Source: a virus. From it: a stretch of 40,777 bases of DNA. The notes under the pieces are model-generated. The model was not told where the DNA came from, did not search any database, and saw only the letters and a program-made list of their open reading frames with translations. The DNA lies in the IMG/VR virus record IMGVR_UViG_3300020202_000146, positions 1 to 40,777 of that record; one strand, written 5' to 3'. Both the position numbers and the translations under genes were made by a program. Shown here piece after piece: positions 5,515 to 24,372 of this stretch (within the stretch, counting starts at the first letter, position 1; each line of letters opens with the position of its first letter).

Positions 5515-5750
5515 TTCCTCCTATGAACCGCTCCCCAAAGTATTGCGATCCATATAACCAGAAAGGCAACGAATGCCGCCCGGTCGCCGTAGAATCCTAA
5601 ACTATTGATTAGTTTCCCCAGCAGAACAGCTGAGAGATACAACAAAAGAAGACCGGTAACCATTAGGCTTAGAGAAAAAGCCCAATGTGCATTACTTAGA
5701 TTTTTATTTAACTCCTCTTTCAATAAAGATAGAATCTTATTCATTCCCAT
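5511..5750 (-). CDS. Small two-helix membrane protein, 79 aa
   Basis: Two hydrophobic segments (about residues 24-45 and 57-72) follow a charged N-terminal helix, and the C-terminus ends HRRN. The ATG at 5750 has an AGGGGAG ribosome site 7 bases upstream. Its stop overlaps the last 4 bases of the convergent ejection gene. It is the distal gene of the only minus-strand cluster. A role in superinfection exclusion or lysogenic conversion is possible, but no family is recognised. Confidence 0.6.
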   Translation of the reverse strand: MGMNKILSLLKEELNKNLSNAHWAFSLSLMVTGLLLLYLSAVLLGKLINSLGFYGDRAAFVAFLVIWIAILWGAVHRRN

Positions 5751-5776
5751 TGCTTTACTCCCCTAGAATGAAGTTG

Positions 5777-6034
5777 TCAAGAAGTCCTCAATACCTTAGA
5801 TAAGATCCACAATCCAAACAAGAACCATCCGAGATACCTTACAATGGAGTAGGTAAACGGGTTATCTCGGTTCTGAAAAAACACCATGAGAGCTAGTGCT
5901 GTAGGTAGCATCAGAACAAGAGTGATACCTTCGGTTACTGAATCATTGAACGGTGAGCCAGCCAGAAAGATAATGGCCAGGATAGCGATTGAGATCACCG
6001 CTACACGGAGTACCCAGACATCTATTTGATTCAT
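5777..6034 (-). CDS. Small three-helix membrane protein, 85 aa
   Basis: Three hydrophobic segments (about residues 7-26, 35-50 and 62-80) leave almost no soluble part. The ATG at 6034 lies 6 bases after the -10 box of the promoter at 6041-6068, which suggests a leaderless transcript. The next gene in the cluster starts 26 bases beyond its stop. Family unknown; a membrane-acting exclusion or conversion protein is only a guess. Confidence 0.6.
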   Translation of the reverse strand: MNQIDVWVLRVAVISIAILAIIFLAGSPFNDSVTEGITLVLMLPTALALMVFFQNRDNPFTYSIVRYLGWFLFGLWILSKVLRTS

Positions 6035-6040
6035 ATTTCT

Positions 6041-6068
6041 AGTTTAGACTTCCGAAGAAACTGGTCAA
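6041..6068 (-). promoter_or_regulatory. Sigma-70-like promoter, minus strand, probably leaderless
   Basis: On the minus strand, TTGACC (6068-6063) and TAAACT (6046-6041) are separated by 16 bases. The predicted transcription start falls at or next to the A of the ATG at 6034. It should drive the two small membrane genes at 5511-6034. Confidence 0.55.
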
Positions 6069-6115
6069 GGAAGTAGGGAATCAGATCAGGTATTTACTGG
6101 AGCAGGAGAAGTAAG

Positions 6116-6670
6116 TTACTGAGTAATCTCAGTCGTCTTAGAAATTGTTCTCTGCTTTCCTAAATAGTCATCTCGCAACCAAAGACCGCCGGCACGAAGT
6201 ATAATATCTACATCTAAGCCATTTTGGTAAGCATACTCTTTAACGGGGTTCATTAGGGGGTCGTCCTTTAACGAGATCAATACCTCTCGAGCCTTTTCCT
6301 GTACATCATATTCTGTTGGCTCTAACCCGACCAAAAGAAGCTCTATCTTTTCTTTGAGCATGCTTTTTTCCTCGTTAAGTATTTTTTCTAAACCACTCTC
6401 GATGATATATTTTCTTCCTAGCTCTGTAGGTTGAAGTGGACTTCCTGGTGCTTCTACCAAGGAATGCTCAAGAGTTATACCTCTCATCCTATTTCTTAAA
6501 GTGGTCTGAATCTCAATGACGGCATTGGTTACCCTGGTTATAGATTTTTTTACTGGGCTAATTACCCTATCTATGTAGAGGAATAAAACAAGTGCCAGCA
6601 CCAACAATGGTGTGTTGTCTTTTGTAAATCCGTATTCTCGAAGCAAATTTAGGGCTGTTTCTAATTCCAT
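6116..6670 (-). CDS. Membrane-anchored protein with cytoplasmic helical domain, 184 aa
   Basis: I set the start at ATG 6670 (MELETALN). The longer open frame to 6742 runs through the neighbouring small gene. Residues about 22-36 form a single membrane anchor. The rest is charged, with a helical stretch around 39-60 and a long Glu/Lys-rich region around 80-140, probably coiled coil. It starts 2 bases after the stop of the 44-aa gene upstream. No family recognised; it may act as a membrane-tethered effector. Confidence 0.55.
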   Translation of the reverse strand: MELETALNLLREYGFTKDNTPLLVLALVLFLYIDRVISPVKKSITRVTNAVIEIQTTLRNRMRGITLEHSLVEAPGSPLQPTELGRKYIIESGLEKILNEEKSMLKEKIELLLVGLEPTEYDVQEKAREVLISLKDDPLMNPVKEYAYQNGLDVDIILRAGGLWLRDDYLGKQRTISKTTEITQ

Positions 6671-6672
6671 AG

Positions 6673-6807
6673 TTAAAAGAGTTCTAACACCTTTTTTATA
6701 CCAAAAGCAAGTGAGAAGAAAATGAGACCATAAGCATACCACCGAGGATCTATGGTAGGAAACCCTTTGTACTTTCTTCCACTGTAGTACTCAAAGTCTC
6801 CTTTCAT
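6673..6807 (-). CDS. Tiny membrane protein, 44 aa
   Basis: This is a clear small gene: a Tyr- and Lys-rich N-terminus (residues 1-20), one membrane helix (about 24-35) and a short KKVLELF tail. The start at 6807 lies 7 bases after the extended -10 box at 6815-6823. It overlaps nothing and is followed 2 bases later by the 184-aa gene. It is the promoter-proximal gene of the minus cluster. Confidence 0.55.
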   Translation of the reverse strand: MKGDFEYYSGRKYKGFPTIDPRWYAYGLIFFSLAFGIKKVLELF

Positions 6808-6814
6808 TACCTCT

Positions 6815-6823
6815 ATCATACCA
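6815..6823 (-). promoter_or_regulatory. Extended -10 promoter for the minus-strand cluster
   Basis: The minus strand carries TG-G-TATGAT, an extended -10 element. No good -35 is seen 16-18 bases upstream. It sits 7 bases before the ATG at 6807, again implying a leaderless mRNA. The opposite strand leads into the papain-like peptidase at 6886, so 6808-6885 is a divergent control region. Confidence 0.45.
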
Positions 6824-6885
6824 CAAGTGGACAACTCCCTGTGCATAAGACGGACAGGATCAAAAACTAGGTATAGCGTAGAAGT

Positions 6886-7935
6886 ATGTGGAAATTTCCA
6901 CCTGATTTTAACCCAGGAGCTATACCAAGGTCGCCTGATCCTCGTGATATTCCATTTAGGGCGGCTGGCGCACCTTCAGTGAACTGGAGTGAAGGCCACA
7001 ACGTACTCAAAGAGCTTGGTTTGACTTTGCCTATCAAGAACCAAGGATCTTCTGGCTCCTGCGTAGGCCAGGCGTGGGCGTACCTCGCTGAAATAAAAGA
7101 GTTTGTCGAGAACAGGTCATTTACGCTTCTCTCACCTCGGGACATTTACTCTCGCATTTGGTTGCCTCCCGATGGTGGGGCGTATGGCTACAAGGGTGGA
7201 AGTATTCTCGCTGCTAGGGGAGTCGCTACCGATGCCTTCGTGAGCTCCTACATCAACGGCAATCCGCCTACCGAAGATTGGATGCGCCGTCGAGATGATT
7301 CTGAGATCGTCACTCGCAACGCTCGTATCCGTAAAGCCTCTGGCTACGGCCACGTCACCTTGACCATGGATGAAATCGCCTACGCTATCCAGCAGCAACA
7401 GGGGATTGTCCTTGGAGTTCACGGAACCAACGAAGGTTGGGGGGATGGGTTTGTCCGGCCACCGCTCCCAGCTGAGCGAATCTGGGGACATTTCCTAGTA
7501 GCTACTGGCTTTGGAACTATCGGCGGTAAACGGTACATCTATGGTCCTAACTCATGGTCAGATCAGTGGGGTGAGAACGGCTACTACTTCCTTTCCGAAG
7601 ATTACTTTAGACAGAACTATGTATTTAACCCGATGGTACTCATGGATTTACCCAATGAATACCTCGAAATAACCAGAATGAAAGACTTAATTAAGTTAGC
7701 CGATTCACCGGATCAGTACTTGGTCGAGTCTGGGTACCGGTACAGAATCCCCGACCTGGAGACGAAAGTCTACTTGCGGGACAGGATAAAAATAATTCTC
7801 GATACGCCTCGCACGGTGACGAGGGAAGAGTTTGACCGATTTCAGGACGGCGGCGTGTTCCCATCATGGCCACTCCACCTGAAAATCGGCGCAATCTACC
7901 CTGCGCTACGTGATGCGTTCGAGCAAAATGCGTAA
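6886..7935 (+). CDS. Papain-like (C1A-type) cysteine peptidase, 349 aa
   Basis: The catalytic set is readable in order. The oxyanion Gln is in KNQGSSGSC (Q53), the nucleophile is C59, the His is in WGHFLVATGFG (H202) and the Asn is in GPNSWSDQWGENGYYF (N222). This is the peptidase C1 layout, with no propeptide and no signal peptide. Residues 250-349 form a C-terminal extension rich in Tyr, Arg and Asp, perhaps for wall or substrate binding. It is followed 1 base later by a holin-like gene, so a role as an endolysin-like peptidase is plausible. A role against host or rival proteins cannot be excluded. A weak TATAGC box lies 8 bases before the ATG. Confidence 0.8.
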   Translation: MWKFPPDFNPGAIPRSPDPRDIPFRAAGAPSVNWSEGHNVLKELGLTLPIKNQGSSGSCVGQAWAYLAEIKEFVENRSFTLLSPRDIYSRIWLPPDGGAYGYKGGSILAARGVATDAFVSSYINGNPPTEDWMRRRDDSEIVTRNARIRKASGYGHVTLTMDEIAYAIQQQQGIVLGVHGTNEGWGDGFVRPPLPAERIWGHFLVATGFGTIGGKRYIYGPNSWSDQWGENGYYFLSEDYFRQNYVFNPMVLMDLPNEYLEITRMKDLIKLADSPDQYLVESGYRYRIPDLETKVYLRDRIKIILDTPRTVTREEFDRFQDGGVFPSWPLHLKIGAIYPALRDAFEQNA

Positions 7936-9534: not shown

Positions 9535-9559
9535 CCGTTGGCAAGTAAAAGAGTATGAT
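9531..9559 (+). promoter_or_regulatory. Promoter P2 (TTGAYCGTWGGCAAG type)
   Basis: TTGACC (9531-9536), a 17-base spacer and TATGAT (9554-9559). The first nine spacer bases, GTTGGCAAG, match P1 in eight positions. It leads into a structured RNA of about 290 bases and, beyond its terminator, the early gene run. Confidence 0.65.
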
Positions 9560-9565
9560 GGGGGA

Positions 9566-9853
9566 GAGTAGGGGAAAGGACATTTACAACTAACCCGTTT
9601 TCCCCTCATTCGGAAGAATGGGGAATTGATGTTATTACTTCAGTGTAATACCTCTTAACCTTCGGGTTAGGGGATAGCGGGTAAATTACTTATCGTCTAG
9701 GAATCGTCCTAGACGCTCGAAATTGAGTTATAGGAGGACTTGGTGAGTCGTATAATCAAAGTTGTATGACGTAAGCCAAAGCCCCGTATAAGTCAAAATA
9801 GAGCGTCTAGGAAGAGCCGACCAATAACCGACGATAAGTCGGTTCTTTTCTTT
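9566..9853 (+). ncRNA. Structured RNA with own promoter and terminator
   Basis: There is no gene in this stretch, but structure is dense. One helix pairs 9570-9577 with 9599-9606. Its loop (9590-9597, CTAACCCG) is fully complementary to 9663-9670, a possible pseudoknot. Hairpins with GGAA (9607-9620) and TTCG (9656-9669) loops follow. A 9-bp hairpin (9694-9702/9707-9715) competes with a perfect 12-bp long-range helix (9707-9718/9801-9812). An AGGAGG (9732-9737) precedes an 8-codon frame from GTG 9743. It may be a free-standing RNA or an antitermination leader (HK022 put-like) for the early genes. No known RNA family is recognised. Confidence 0.6.
9827..9853 (+). terminator. Intrinsic terminator of the structured RNA unit
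   Basis: ACCGAC (9827-9832), loop GATAA, GTCGGT (9838-9843), then a T-rich tail TCTTTTCTTT. It ends the P2 transcript unless antitermination occurs. Confidence 0.75.
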
Positions 9854-9986
9854 CAGAGAAAGTACCCAGGTGTCGATACGGTATGGGGACGACCTTTTAT
9901 ACCTCCTGCCGTTGGGTACCTCCTCTGGGAGGAAAGAACTCATAGCGTCGAACCCGCTTGTATCAAGCAAATTAACAACACAGCAA
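9854..9986 (+). other. Second hairpin block between terminator and early genes
   Basis: No gene. Arms GTACCCA and TGGGTAC (in the ranges 9862-9868 and 9912-9919) enclose ACGG/CCGT and GGTAT/ATACC pairings. Then come CCTCC-TCTG-GGAGG (about 9919-9932), AGCG-7-CGCT (about 9942-9956) and GCTTG-TAT-CAAGC (about 9957-9969). I see no convincing promoter inside. Confidence 0.45.
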
Positions 9987-15441: not shown

Positions 15442-15654
15442 ATGAAGAGAAATCACTATAAACTTGGTAGGTTATTCGGCCATGATGTAACGATTCACAT
15501 TCAGCTTTATGATGGAGCGCCAGAACATGAATTTAAGTTAATTCACGAGAAAGCTTGTAAGTTTTTCGAGAATACATTTAAAGATCGAGAAGCACTTCAG
15601 CAATTAAGAGATCAAATTAAGTTGGATGATCTTATTGACTATGACCGAGACTAA
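15442..15654 (+). CDS. Unknown small protein, 70 aa
   Basis: It starts 2 bases after the previous stop. The N-terminus looks beta (KLGRLFGHDVTIHIQLYDG) and the C-terminus helical and acidic. It overlaps the terminase small subunit start by 14 bases. No family recognised. Confidence 0.45.
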   Translation: MKRNHYKLGRLFGHDVTIHIQLYDGAPEHEFKLIHEKACKFFENTFKDREALQQLRDQIKLDDLIDYDRD

Positions 15655-16075
15655 AGAAAGACCACTCAATCCAAAGCATGAACTCTTCTGCCAGCTCTAC
15701 GTGAGCGGTGAGAGGGAACTGTTTGGAAATGGAACTCTCTGCTACCTAGAAGTCTACGGAAGCAAAGACGAGGGTGGTAAGAAAATGAGCTACATGGCCG
15801 CTGCCGCTGCTGCATCCCGATTGTTAAAAAACGTTAAGATCATCAACCGGGTAAATGAGCTCCTAGAGACTGGTGGATTCAATGCCGAGAATGTGGACAA
15901 GCAGCACCTATTTCTGATCAACCAATTCTCTGATCTCAAAACCAAGATGGCAGCGATTAAAGAGTTCAACGCACTTAAAAACCGTATCAGTAACAAGCTC
16001 GATATTACGAGTGATGGTAAGCAGATAGGCGTAGTCTATTTACCTCAGAAGCAGCCGGTACCAAAAGAGGAATAA
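15641..16075 (+). CDS. terS: Terminase small subunit, 144 aa
   Basis: The pattern LNPKHELFCQLYVSG...NGTLCYLEVYG...AAAAAASRLLKNVKIINRVNELL is that of Terminase_2-type small subunits. An N-terminal helix-turn-helix region recognises the pac/cos DNA, and a following helix makes the ring. I start at ATG 15641 (MTETKERPLN) rather than 15626, as homologous proteins begin close to this point. The large subunit lies 3.5 kb downstream, an unusual separation filled with small genes and two RNAs. Confidence 0.78.
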   Translation: MTETKERPLNPKHELFCQLYVSGERELFGNGTLCYLEVYGSKDEGGKKMSYMAAAAAASRLLKNVKIINRVNELLETGGFNAENVDKQHLFLINQFSDLKTKMAAIKEFNALKNRISNKLDITSDGKQIGVVYLPQKQPVPKEE

Positions 16076-16468: not shown

Positions 16469-16627
16469 ATGCCGACAATACTTACAAAGGATATAGAGAA
16501 AGCGTCAGTTAAGGAGCTTAAGTTCAGGTTAAAACTGTTGAAGGGGGTTCAGGAAGCTACAGAGGACGAAATAGACGAGATACAGGTTGAACTCTTGAAG
16601 CGGAAGCCGTTGGTCAAGGTTGAGTAG
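16469..16627 (+). CDS. Short coiled-coil protein, 52 aa
   Basis: A clear AAAGGAGG ribosome site (16451-16458) lies 10 bases before the ATG, one of the few strong sites in the genome. The product is one long amphipathic helix (residues about 10-45) with heptad-like Leu spacing. Its stop is 11 bases before the structured RNA region. Confidence 0.45.
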   Translation: MPTILTKDIEKASVKELKFRLKLLKGVQEATEDEIDEIQVELLKRKPLVKVE

Positions 16628-16638
16628 CACCCCATACC

Positions 16639-16741
16639 GTGTGGTTCGTCTCTAGGGGGATGGAAACCCTGCGATAAACCTAGAGAGCATTTTAACGGAG
16701 ATAGTAGCTAAATCTCCTAGCTCCCTAAAGGCGAATCACAC
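16639..16741 (+). ncRNA. Structured RNA A, three-way-junction type
   Basis: Outer stem: 16639-16648 with 16732-16741, 10 bp with one G-T. Arm 1: 16650-16656 with 16679-16685 (7 bp), enclosing GGG/CCC at 16657-16659 and 16667-16669. Arm 2: 16697-16702 with 16712-16717 (6 bp). The loop of arm 2 holds AGCTA, complementary to TAGCT at 16718-16722, giving an alternative hairpin. The outer stem shares GTGGTT and AATCAC with the next RNA. No open frame is here and no known RNA family is recognised. Confidence 0.6.
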
Positions 16742-16749
16742 CCTATGTA

Positions 16750-16857
16750 CTGAGTGGTTGGTAGATGGGGGGAGGAATGTACGTTCGACCCGTACCTACG
16801 GATATGGCTACCGTAGTAGCCTAATGGTAAGGCTCTCCCCACCTGCCAATCACCAGA
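16750..16857 (+). ncRNA. Permuted tRNA-like RNA, Y-RNA (YrlA)-like
   Basis: In order: a closing helix (16754-16763 with 16844-16853, then 16769-16774 with 16835-16840); variable-loop-like GAAT (16775-16778); a T-arm with stem 16779-16783/16791-16795 and loop TTCGACC; an acceptor-like stem CTACGG/CCGTAG (16796-16801/16811-16816) closed by a 9-base loop; TA; and a D-arm (16819-16833) with GG in the loop. Reordered, this is a tRNA with U8, A14, A15-U48, G18G19, U55C56 and A58. U33 is absent and the anticodon stem is continued by the closing helix. This matches the tRNA-mimic module described for bacterial YrlA RNAs. No Ro60 gene is present. Confidence 0.65.
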
Positions 16858-16881
16858 GTATCAATAACATATACAAAGAGT

Positions 16882-17145
16882 ATGCCTTTAAAGAAAGTAA
16901 TTATAGAGCTACCGCACATAGAAATAAGCTCGGCGATATATCAGGAGGACGTATTGCTGTTACTCCAAAGATATATTGAGGATGCGCTTAGAAGTCCGGA
17001 AATTCATAAAAAGATCGAAGCCATAAAGGACGAGTTGTGTCATATAGCTCTCGAGAGGGTAAAGCAGGAGAAAGACCACTCGATCATCGATTATGCGAAT
17101 CATGGTGCCAATTTCTATCCACCAGATCACTCTAACCCATCCTAA
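16882..17145 (+). CDS. Unknown helical protein, 87 aa
   Basis: First gene after the RNA region. Helical and charged, with two Cys/His clusters (LCHIAL, ANHGANFYPPDH) but no clear metal motif. No Shine-Dalgarno. No family recognised. Confidence 0.45.
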   Translation: MPLKKVIIELPHIEISSAIYQEDVLLLLQRYIEDALRSPEIHKKIEAIKDELCHIALERVKQEKDHSIIDYANHGANFYPPDHSNPS

Positions 17146-19477: not shown

Positions 19478-19619
19478 CGCTCTTGGTGGCTGTAGGTGTT
19501 CTTTCCTTAGTTGTGAAGGCTCTCCCTCTCCCCAGAGAGAATTGCATCAGCCATACACTCTCCGTTCTCGTGCTACAAGCGTCTATCCTACAGTGGCGCC
19601 TGCAGCCATCAGTAGCGTT

Positions 19620-20999
19620 ATGCCAGACTGGAAACCACAACCGAAACAGGAAATAGCCTTAGCACAGACCGCTGAGGAAATTCTCTATGGGGGAGCTCGA
19701 GGTGGGGGAAAGACCGATGCCGGCATGGCATTTCCTCTCTATCACAAAGACCATCCGCTTTTTCGTGCGCTCGTTGTCCGCAAGAACGCCGATGACCTAA
19801 AAGATTGGGCGGATCGTGCGGAACGGTTCTTTGCCCGATGTGGTGCAACGAGGCGTGGTACGCCACCGGAGTTCGTATTCCCTTCGGGGGCCATTATTCG
19901 TACCGGCCACCTAAAAGACGAGAACGCCTACATGAAGTACCAAGGCCACGAGTACCAGAACATGATCATTGAGGAGTTGAACCAGATCCCCCAGGTCATG
20001 AACTACGTCATGTTAATAGCCTCCTGCCGATCTTCGATACCTGAGCTCAGGCCGCAAGTGTTCAATACTACTAACCCTGGTGGTCCTGGTAATGAGTGGA
20101 TCAAGGAGCGTTGGAACATACCCGATGAACCAGGGGATGAGCCTATCTATACGAAACTAGTTATGAATGGTGTTGCCCGGTACCTGGTATTCATCCCCGC
20201 AAGAATCGAGGATAACCCAGCACTCATGAAGGCAGATCCGGGGTACGTGGCCTTTCTTGATTCTCTTCCCGATGGTCTTCGCCAGCAATGGCGTTCCGGT
20301 TCCTGGGCTGATTTTGATATTAAAGGATCCTACTACATCAACGAGATTCGCCAACTTATCCGTGAGAAAAGGTACCGCTTCGTACCCCATGAGCCACTAC
20401 TGAAGGTGCATACGGTATGGGACTTAGGACAATCAGCAGGAAACGCTATGGCTATTGGCTTCTGGCAGGCTATTTCCACTGAGCTGAGACTCATTGGCTA
20501 CTACCAGAATGAATCCTTTGGTTTCCCTCACTACTTCTCAATGCTTCAGCAGTTTCAGCAAGAGCGAGGGTATGTGTATGGTAAGCATTTCGCTCCCTTT
20601 GATATGAACGTAAAAGAGTTGGGAACTGGCAAAACACGACTACAGGTAGCCCAAGAGGCAGGGTGGAATTTTGAGGTAGTACCTCAGGTCCCCATTGCGG
20701 ACGGGATCGAGCAGGTCAGGTTACTATTCCCTAAGCTATGGATCAACACCGAGAACGGGGGGAAGCAGTTCATGAGTGCCATCAAGCAGTACCGGCGCAA
20801 ATTTGATGAAACTAGACAATCGTACGCCAGCCAGCCCCTGCACGATTGGACTTCTAACCCGGCCGATATGTTGCGCTACACCGCACTGATCCACAAGCAC
20901 ATGACTAACGCAGATCAAAAACCTAAATATCGTCAGAAGCCTTACGTGGCGTCGTCTCCCTTTGAAGGCGGCGTACGGAGGTCTGATTCAATCCTATGA
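19620..20999 (+). CDS. terL: Terminase large subunit, 459 aa
   Basis: The packaging ATPase/nuclease. Walker A GGARGGGKT (residues 24-32), Walker B MIIEE (115-119) and the coupling motif NTTNPGG (149-155) form the ATPase. The RNase H-like nuclease follows, with Asp in VWDLG (D268), in FDMN (D328) and near HDWTSNPADM (D409 or D416). I start at ATG 19620 (MPDWKPQPKQ), which places Walker A near residue 24 as usual. A TTG at 19542 would add 26 residues of low quality. It overlaps the next gene by ATGA. Confidence 0.92.
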   Translation: MPDWKPQPKQEIALAQTAEEILYGGARGGGKTDAGMAFPLYHKDHPLFRALVVRKNADDLKDWADRAERFFARCGATRRGTPPEFVFPSGAIIRTGHLKDENAYMKYQGHEYQNMIIEELNQIPQVMNYVMLIASCRSSIPELRPQVFNTTNPGGPGNEWIKERWNIPDEPGDEPIYTKLVMNGVARYLVFIPARIEDNPALMKADPGYVAFLDSLPDGLRQQWRSGSWADFDIKGSYYINEIRQLIREKRYRFVPHEPLLKVHTVWDLGQSAGNAMAIGFWQAISTELRLIGYYQNESFGFPHYFSMLQQFQQERGYVYGKHFAPFDMNVKELGTGKTRLQVAQEAGWNFEVVPQVPIADGIEQVRLLFPKLWINTENGGKQFMSAIKQYRRKFDETRQSYASQPLHDWTSNPADMLRYTALIHKHMTNADQKPKYRQKPYVASSPFEGGVRRSDSIL

Positions 21000-23910: not shown

Positions 23911-23926
23911 GTGGTGAAATTAACAT

Positions 23927-24070
23927 ATGGCTAAATCTAAAAAAGCATCGACTGAGGAAGTATCAGTCGAGTACGAAGGTGGAGCGGTCCGCACCTATAC
24001 TGGACCTGATGCGTTAGAGAAGGCAGAGGAGTTTGTATCAAAGTCTCCGAGCACTCGGAAGATTTTGTAG
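23927..24070 (+). CDS. Small protein, 47 aa
   Basis: A basic N-terminus (AKSKKAS), a short strand pair (SVEYEGGAVRTYTG) and a helix (ALEKAEEFVSKS). This small beta-beta-alpha layout is frequent in phage accessory proteins. It ends just before the structured region at 24075. Role unknown. Confidence 0.45.
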   Translation: MAKSKKASTEEVSVEYEGGAVRTYTGPDALEKAEEFVSKSPSTRKIL

Positions 24071-24074
24071 TTCG

Positions 24075-24183
24075 TTCGACATCAAAAGTGTAACAAAAGC
24101 CCTTCAGGGGCTCTCTCTTGAGAGCTTGTTCCTCAAGCCCTTTCGATGAGGTTGGTTACGTTACACTTTCCACCCACATCGAA
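24075..24183 (+). ncRNA. Structured RNA or operon-end element
   Basis: Closing pair TTCGA/TCGAA (24075-24079/24179-24183), then a perfect 10-bp stem (24085-24094 with 24160-24169). Inside are AGCCC-TTCAG-GGGCT (24098-24112), which competes with GCTCTC-TCTT-GAGAGC (24110-24125), and GCTTG-TTCCT-CAAGC. The terminator follows 10 bases later. It may protect the 3' end of the packaging transcript or be a separate small RNA; no promoter is seen. Confidence 0.5.
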
Positions 24184-24193
24184 CCCAAGGGAG

Positions 24194-24222
24194 AGCCGCT
24201 GAAAAGCGGCTTTCTGCTTTCT
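24194..24222 (+). terminator. Intrinsic terminator after the portal operon
   Basis: AGCCGCT, GAAA tetraloop, AGCGGCT (24194-24211), then TTCTGCTTTCT. It separates the packaging genes from the highly expressed scaffold/coat genes. Confidence 0.75.
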
Positions 24223-24372
24223 GGCCAGCACCCCGACCAGATGTGGACAGCAGCCCGCACAAAAGCTGTTGTGGCCTAGCCACTCTGTAGAGTTGCTACC
24301 TACTAACCAAGTAGCTCGGAACGTAAGGTCCTCTCAGTTTGCGAGTACCCTACACCCGTTCTATTCGCACGT
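24223..24372 (+). other. Hairpin-rich leader of the scaffold/coat genes
   Basis: No gene in this 150-base stretch. Hairpins ACAGC/GCTGT, GTGGC-CTA-GCCAC, ACTCT/AGAGT and GCTAC/GTAGC stand in a row. A promoter is expected here, since a terminator precedes and the coat gene follows, but I find no convincing -35/-10 pair. Confidence 0.45.

What the first reader, a model, noticed from the sequence alone, without database searches (positions are those of the whole stretch)
16750..16857. Phage-encoded permuted tRNA mimic resembling a bacterial Y RNA (YrlA)
The elements read in the order anticodon-stem 3' strand, T-arm, acceptor 3' strand, 9-base loop, acceptor 5' strand, D-arm, anticodon-stem 5' strand. 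Put back in tRNA order, all elbow residues are right: U8, A14, A15 with U48, G18-G19, U55-C56 and A58, with a 5-bp T-stem, a 4-bp D-stem and a 6-bp acceptor stem. The anticodon is missing: there is no U33, and the anticodon stem runs on into a long helix that closes the molecule. This is the fold described for the YrlA class of bacterial Y RNAs, which mimic tRNA and bind Ro60 (Rsr) and a nuclease. No Ro60-like gene is in the genome, so it would have to use a host protein or act alone, for example as a decoy for tRNA-modifying or processing enzymes. A true permuted tRNA is the less likely alternative.
Basis: partly seen in the sequence, partly recalled or inferred. Interest (0 to 1): 0.85.

Follow-up and report, generated by a model that had tools for sequence, protein, structure and literature searches.

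The report
Ro-less phage tRNA-mimic RNA pair
A complete bacterial-virus genome carries two neighbouring structured RNAs built on the same stem, one of which folds like a rearranged transfer RNA in the manner of bacterial Y RNAs, although the virus has no recognisable gene for the Ro protein that such RNAs normally accompany.

Summary
Window 16750-16856 contains, in permuted order, a 5-bp T-arm, a 6-bp acceptor helix closed by a 9-nt loop, U8-A9, a 4-bp D-arm and a long closing stem. Random sequence of the same composition gives about 0.002 such cores per window, and none with the stem in 237 Mb.

A covariance model trained only on Y RNAs lying beside Ro/Rsr genes (Salmonella YrlA, phages, Rhizobiales) finds this exact place with 30.1 bits (E about 6e-7); the next best place has 9.2 bits. 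The YrlA comparison is therefore supported.

New: the 100 nt just upstream is a diverged tandem copy. The two closing stems align over 19 positions with 14 identical pairs, 4 compensatory double changes, 1 swapped C.A/A.C mismatch and no one-sided change. The upstream copy lacks T- and D-arms. One tRNA-like and one plain RNA in tandem resembles Salmonella YrlB-YrlA.

What differs: this circular, apparently complete genome has no Ro gene, the stem lacks an obvious Ro-site, Rfam YrlA does not match, and no homolog was found in 80 related phages. Best reading: a Ro-less, YrlA-like tRNA-mimic pair, probably scaffold or decoy for tRNA-elbow-binding host enzymes. Function and transcription are untested.

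The parts
16628..16881 (+). non-coding gap that holds both RNA elements, between a 52-aa ORF (16469-16627) and an 87-aa ORF (16882-17145)
   Evidence: third largest gap between plausible genes in the genome
16750..16773 (+). closing stem of the tRNA-like RNA, 5' strand (anticodon-stem 3' strand continued outward)
   Evidence: pairs with 16834-16856; 19 positions covary with the upstream copy
16774..16778 (+). variable region GGAAT, ending in U48
16779..16795 (+). T-arm, 5 bp, loop TTCGACC
16796..16816 (+). acceptor helix CTACGG/CCGTAG, 6 bp, closed by the 9-nt loop ATATGGCTA (no CCA end)
16817..16818 (+). U8 and A9 linker
16819..16833 (+). D-arm, 4 bp, loop AATGGTA with G18-G19
16834..16856 (+). 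closing stem of the tRNA-like RNA, 3' strand
16639..16659 (+). closing stem of the upstream tandem copy, 5' strand
   Evidence: z -4.1; alignment to downstream element, 0 of 500 shuffles as good
16660..16720 (+). inner domain of the upstream copy: 61 nt, holds a 6-bp/9-nt-loop hairpin at 16697-16717, no T-arm or D-arm
16721..16741 (+). closing stem of the upstream tandem copy, 3' strand
15626..16075 (+). terminase small subunit gene upstream (context)
   Evidence: phrog_51, E 2.8e-10
19542..20999 (+). terminase large subunit gene downstream (context)
   Evidence: phrog_979, E 7e-39

Best explanation
The feature is the tRNA-like member of a tandem pair of phage non-coding RNAs built like bacterial Y RNAs. 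Shown: both RNAs have the same 19-position closing stem, kept by compensatory changes, and the downstream one carries a YrlA-type permuted tRNA elbow (T-arm, sealed acceptor helix, D-arm). Inferred: the RNAs are made as part of the rightward transcript between the terminase genes, the shared stem protects the ends and docks a common protein, and the tRNA-like module docks host proteins that read the tRNA elbow (in known YrlA: PNPase, TruB, DusA), so that it works as a scaffold or competitive decoy that redirects host RNA decay or tRNA enzymes during infection. Because there is no Ro gene in the phage and no evident Ro-site in the stem, the docked protein is probably not a canonical Ro; it would be another phage or host protein.
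For: Model R2, trained only on Ro-linked Y RNA cores, hits 16779-16833 with 30.1 bits, E 5.8e-7, next best 9.2; on 98.6 kb of other phage and bacterial DNA its best score is 13.7. Same order in Salmonella YrlA, which Rfam RF02553 confirms at L206:800-918, with YrlB (RF02565) 4 nt upstream. Tandem copy with 4 compensatory double changes, 1 swapped mismatch and 0 one-sided changes in 19 stem positions, P 8.6e-5. Fold z -4.25, -4.1 and -4.46 for the element, the upstream copy and the pair. Chance rate. Phages with YrlA-like RNAs are common, and 10 of 19 such records also hold a Ro-like gene, so the architecture is a phage theme. YrlA as PNPase tether and DusA/TruB substrate: PMC8394870; a possible competitive inhibitor of an anticodon nuclease: PMC7790460.
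Against: No Ro gene in the apparently complete genome. The stem is a near-continuous helix without the motif and internal loop seen in Ro-linked Y RNAs. Rfam YrlA gives no match even at E 10. No homolog in 80 phages with related terminase, so the three inner helices of this element have no covariation of their own. No promoter or terminator found. Energy alone slightly prefers another inner fold. Default-filter cmsearch misses it with R2. E-values of R2 are rough.
Confidence: 0.62

Rival explanations
1. A canonical Y RNA pair that uses a Ro/Rsr protein of the host, or a Ro too diverged to detect.
For: Phages with YrlA-like RNAs usually carry Ro (10 of 19 records, several found only with the phage-Ro profile and not with Pfam). 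Tandem YrlB-YrlA arrangement.
Against: No Ro-like candidate at all in the window with either profile. Ro in 2 of 162 Vicinamibacterales and 0 of 287 Patescibacteria, the two groups whose genomes hold the nearest full-length terminase matches (host not established). Stem lacks the Ro-site pattern.
Confidence: 0.17
2. A cis-acting tRNA-like processing signal: RNase P (or RNase Z) cuts at the stacked T-arm/acceptor to split the polycistronic transcript.
For: Stacked T-stem plus acceptor helix is a minimal RNase P substrate (general knowledge); the element sits in a dense rightward gene run between the terminase genes.
Against: The acceptor is sealed by a 9-nt loop without a CCA, and the 23-bp closing stem would hold both halves after cutting. 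Does not explain the tandem copy that lacks T- and D-arms but keeps the stem.
Confidence: 0.1
3. A functional circularly permuted tRNA.
For: Permuted order, all elbow residues, plausible T- and D-arms.
Against: The D-arm runs straight into the closing stem: no anticodon arm, no U33, no CCA; ARAGORN finds none. Bacteria have no known enzyme set for joining such halves.
Confidence: 0.02
4. A structural RNA with a role in DNA packaging or gene regulation whose tRNA likeness is incidental.
For: Position between terS (15626) and terL (19542); no known partner.
Against: Match to the Ro-linked Y RNA model at 30.1 bits with all tertiary residues is hard to call incidental.
Confidence: 0.06

Closest known systems
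YrlA class of bacterial Y RNAs (Rfam RF02553; Chen et al. 2014; Wang et al. 2018, as cited in PMC8394870)
   Same: Order T-arm, acceptor hairpin closed by a loop, U8-A9, D-arm, all inside a long stem of the two ends; elbow residues; about 100 nt; a second RNA in tandem.
   Different: No Ro/Rsr gene beside it or elsewhere in the genome; stem is one long near-perfect helix without the Ro-site pattern; 5-nt variable region instead of 14; Rfam model does not match.
YrlB (Rfam RF02565)
   Same: A tandem partner directly upstream that shares the closing stem but lacks the complete tRNA-like domain.
   Different: No sequence match; identity of the upstream copy as a YrlB-type RNA rests on arrangement only.
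Phage Y RNAs beside Ro genes (Mycobacterium phage Myrna, Streptomyces phages, Gordonia phage Cashline, csAssE-Sib; putative ones in Listeria phage CKA15, PMC12282133)
   Same: Phage-encoded, same core architecture, often two copies that share the stem (Cashline).
   Different: Those genomes encode Ro and the stems carry a shared GGTTAC-like motif; the window has neither.
Two-piece (permuted) tmRNA
   Same: Same permuted order: T-arm, acceptor 3', loop, acceptor 5', D-region.
   Different: No tag reading frame, no CCA, no G3-U70; has a true D-stem; ARAGORN and Rfam permuted tmRNA models do not match.

Membership tests
YrlA-type Y RNA | tRNA-like domain in the order T-arm, sealed acceptor helix, U8-A9, D-arm | tested here: met
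   30.1 bits, E 5.8e-7 with a model trained on Ro-linked Y RNAs only
YrlA-type Y RNA | tRNA elbow residues (U8, A14, 15-48 pair, G18-G19, U55-C56, A58) | tested here: met
   all read off at the stated positions
YrlA-type Y RNA | long stem formed by the 5' and 3' ends, length about 90-150 nt | tested here: met
   107 nt; length range from PMC8394870
YrlA-type Y RNA | encoded with a Ro60/Rsr (TROVE) gene | tested here: not met
   no TROVE and no phage-Ro profile match in the genome
YrlA-type Y RNA | Ro-binding pattern in the stem (as seen in Ro-linked members: 5' CGAATGC or GGTTAC-like, 3' GTCG or CAACAT, with an internal loop) | tested here: inconclusive
   by inspection: not seen; pattern itself was drawn up here from few sequences
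YrlA-type Y RNA | second Y RNA in tandem sharing the stem | tested here: met
YrlA-type Y RNA | match to Rfam RF02553 | tested here: not met
   but the model is narrow, it also misses Ro-linked RNAs of L215, L217, L218, L219
YrlA-type Y RNA | binds Rsr and PNPase; substrate of TruB and DusA | not testable with these tools
   needs biochemistry
circularly permuted tRNA | anticodon arm with U33 and a route to a CCA end | tested here: not met
   D-arm is followed directly by the closing stem, no anticodon arm
two-piece tmRNA | tag reading frame and alanine identity G3-U70 | tested here: not met
   acceptor CCGTAG/CTACGG has no G3-U70

The most novel reading that the evidence does not exclude
A Y-RNA-like pair that works without Ro: the shared, covarying stem binds a different phage or host protein, and the tRNA-like module recruits or blocks a host tRNA or RNA-decay enzyme. 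This would make tRNA-mimic Y RNAs a broader, Ro-independent phage tool.
Probability: 0.35. Interest if true: 0.75.

Novelty: new variant of a known kind. Interest (0 to 1): 0.52.

Why it matters
Bacterial Y RNAs were described next to Ro genes. An apparently complete phage genome that keeps a tRNA-mimic Y RNA and a stem-sharing partner under structural constraint, without Ro, gives a clean place to ask what the tRNA mimic does on its own. It also shows that Rfam's YrlA model and ordinary tRNA finders miss this class, which appears to be widespread in phages.

Tried and rejected
Chance: rejected by fold shuffles and by 237 Mb of random sequence. tRNA, tmRNA, known Rfam RNA: rejected. Close relatives: none by blastn in phage records, by single-protein scans with portal and terminase, or by exact acceptor sequence. 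80 terminase relatives hold no copy by model R1, by R2 or by a stem detector. The shared-stem 20-mer has no true homolog in IMG/VR. First idea that phage YrlA-like RNAs are mostly Ro-less (2 of 13 with Pfam TROVE) was dropped: a phage-Ro profile finds Ro in 10 of 19 records. Covariation counts on the pooled family are not used as proof, because most rows were picked by a detector that demands the pairs. Search for a host Ro: host not resolved; nearest prophage relative is 51% in terminase, in a Vicinamibacterales contig. Neighbouring small proteins give no RNA-binding family.

Full report
What is there. The window is a circular phage genome that looks complete: a 126-bp repeat joins its ends, with terminase, portal, major head protein, integrase and tail genes. 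Between the terminase small subunit (15626-16075) and large subunit (19542-20999) lies a 254-nt stretch without a gene (16628-16881). Its right half is the reported element. There is no anticodon loop.

Is it more than chance? The element folds better than all 200 shuffles, z -4.25. A detector for the permuted core found 6 hits in 237 Mb of random sequence with the window's dinucleotide composition, about 0.002 per window, and none that also had the closing stem. Energy alone prefers another inner fold by 1.8 kcal/mol; such energies leave out the D-loop/T-loop contacts that hold tRNA together.

Is it like YrlA? Rfam reports nothing, but its YrlA model proved narrow. To test the class itself I collected Y RNAs that lie beside Ro/Rsr genes. 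A Salmonella stretch held in a 'phage' record (L206) contains the end of rsr, then YrlB and YrlA, both confirmed by Rfam. Its Rsr fragment led to Ro genes in phages and plasmids, and beside them the same permuted core was found in Streptomyces phage Jada (two), Gordonia phage Cashline (two), csAssE-Sib, Methylosinus and Rhizobium, and in weaker form in Mycobacterium phage Myrna. Rfam YrlA misses the tested phage and alphaproteobacterial ones. A covariance model of eight such cores, with the window left out, finds exactly 16779-16833 with 30.1 bits, E 5.8e-7; the second best place in the genome has 9.2 bits, and the best in 98.6 kb of other DNA 13.7. With Infernal's default filters the site is lost, and the calibration is short, so the E-value is rough; the gap between 30 and 9-14 bits is the sounder statement.

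A second RNA. The 100 nt upstream fold on their own with z -4.1. They align with the reported element better than 500 shuffles (44.5 against a maximum of 43.5), and the 20-mer GTGGTTnGTnnnTnGGGGGA occurs exactly at 16641 and 16754. Laid on each other, the two closing stems agree in register over 19 positions: 14 identical pairs, among them three G-U pairs at the same places, 4 positions changed on both strands with pairing kept, one C.A mismatch turned into A.C, and no position changed on one strand only (P 8.6e-5 that the changes coincide). This is the strongest evidence in the window that the region is a functional RNA. The upstream copy has no T-arm or D-arm; it keeps a 6-bp, 9-nt-loop hairpin (16697-16717). 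One tRNA-like and one plain RNA on a common stem is the arrangement of Salmonella YrlB-YrlA, where the two are 4 nt apart.

What is missing. No TROVE gene and no match to a profile of eight Ro proteins from phages, a haloarchaeal virus and Rhizobium. That profile is sensitive: it finds a Ro-like gene in 10 of 19 records that carry YrlA-like RNAs, where Pfam found 2 of 13. In Ro-linked Y RNAs the stem shows a recurrent pattern and an internal loop; the window's stem is an almost continuous helix without it (by inspection). Ro is rare or absent in the two groups whose genomes hold the nearest full-length terminase matches: 2 of 162 Vicinamibacterales, 0 of 287 Patescibacteria. The host is unresolved; the best cellular match is a prophage at 51% terminase identity in a Vicinamibacterales contig. 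No homolog of either RNA was found in 80 phages with 40-54% terminase identity, so there is no alignment of close relatives to test the inner helices.

How it may work. Shown: conserved stem in two copies, tRNA elbow architecture. From the literature: in Deinococcus the Y RNA tethers Rsr to PNPase, and YrlA is modified by DusA and TruB (PMC8394870; PMC8058203); YrlA's tRNA-like part has been proposed as a competitive inhibitor of an anticodon nuclease (PMC7790460). Phage Y RNAs are already on record: bioinformatically in mycobacteriophages, and as putative highly transcribed RNAs near a Rsr-like gene in Listeria phage CKA15 (PMC12282133). Inferred: the shared stem docks one protein, the tRNA-like head docks an elbow-reading host enzyme, and the pair acts as scaffold or decoy. 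Since Ro is not encoded and its site is not evident, a different docking protein is more likely than a host Ro.

Novelty. A YrlA-like RNA in a phage is a known kind. A tandem pair under visible structural constraint in a Ro-less, apparently complete phage genome, with a stem of its own, is a new variant. It is not filed as a Y RNA proper, because the Ro gene was looked for and is absent.

Noticed in passing
L305:5727-5850, L321 (minus strand, near 2896-2943), L014:3300-3424 (minus), L317:345-430, L310 (minus, near 595-660): In phage contigs with D-arm TAGCCTAAYGGTAAGGC the permuted T-arm/acceptor/D-arm core is followed by a 5-bp, 7-nt-loop hairpin that looks like an anticodon arm (U33 in four of five), so the whole tRNA cloverleaf is present, opened at the variable loop and set in an outer helix. 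In L317 the acceptor loop begins GCCA. Y RNA with an anticodon arm, or a true permuted tRNA, is open.
   Followed up: partly
L011, L021, L040, L042, L045, L066, L078, L081, L088, L094, L101: YrlA-like permuted RNAs not seen by ARAGORN are frequent in IMG/VR phages, many with tRNA arrays; most but not all of these contigs also carry a Ro-like gene that Pfam TROVE misses.
   Followed up: partly
Rfam RF02553: Rfam's YrlA model fits the Salmonella RNA only; of the Ro-linked phage and alphaproteobacterial Y RNAs tested none reached its cut-off.
   Followed up: yes
L206 (OR851267.1) and OR845705.1: Two short 'phage' records are bacterial chromosome pieces that hold rsr; L206 also holds yrlB, yrlA and rtcB.
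   Followed up: partly
L229 (JAUXWO010000076.1): A related prophage (terminase 51%, portal 34%, head protein 37%) is integrated in a Vicinamibacterales contig, GC 0.60 inside 0.70.
   Followed up: partly
window 9535-9869 and 23911-24372: Two other gaps without clear genes; the first holds a 40-nt imperfect inverted repeat (9704-9743/9776-9815), perhaps an attachment or control site near the integrase.
   Followed up: no
L122 (MW202566.1) 5695-7646: A spring-water phage related by terminase (48% over 41% of the protein) carries genes annotated as GroES-like and GroEL.
   Followed up: no
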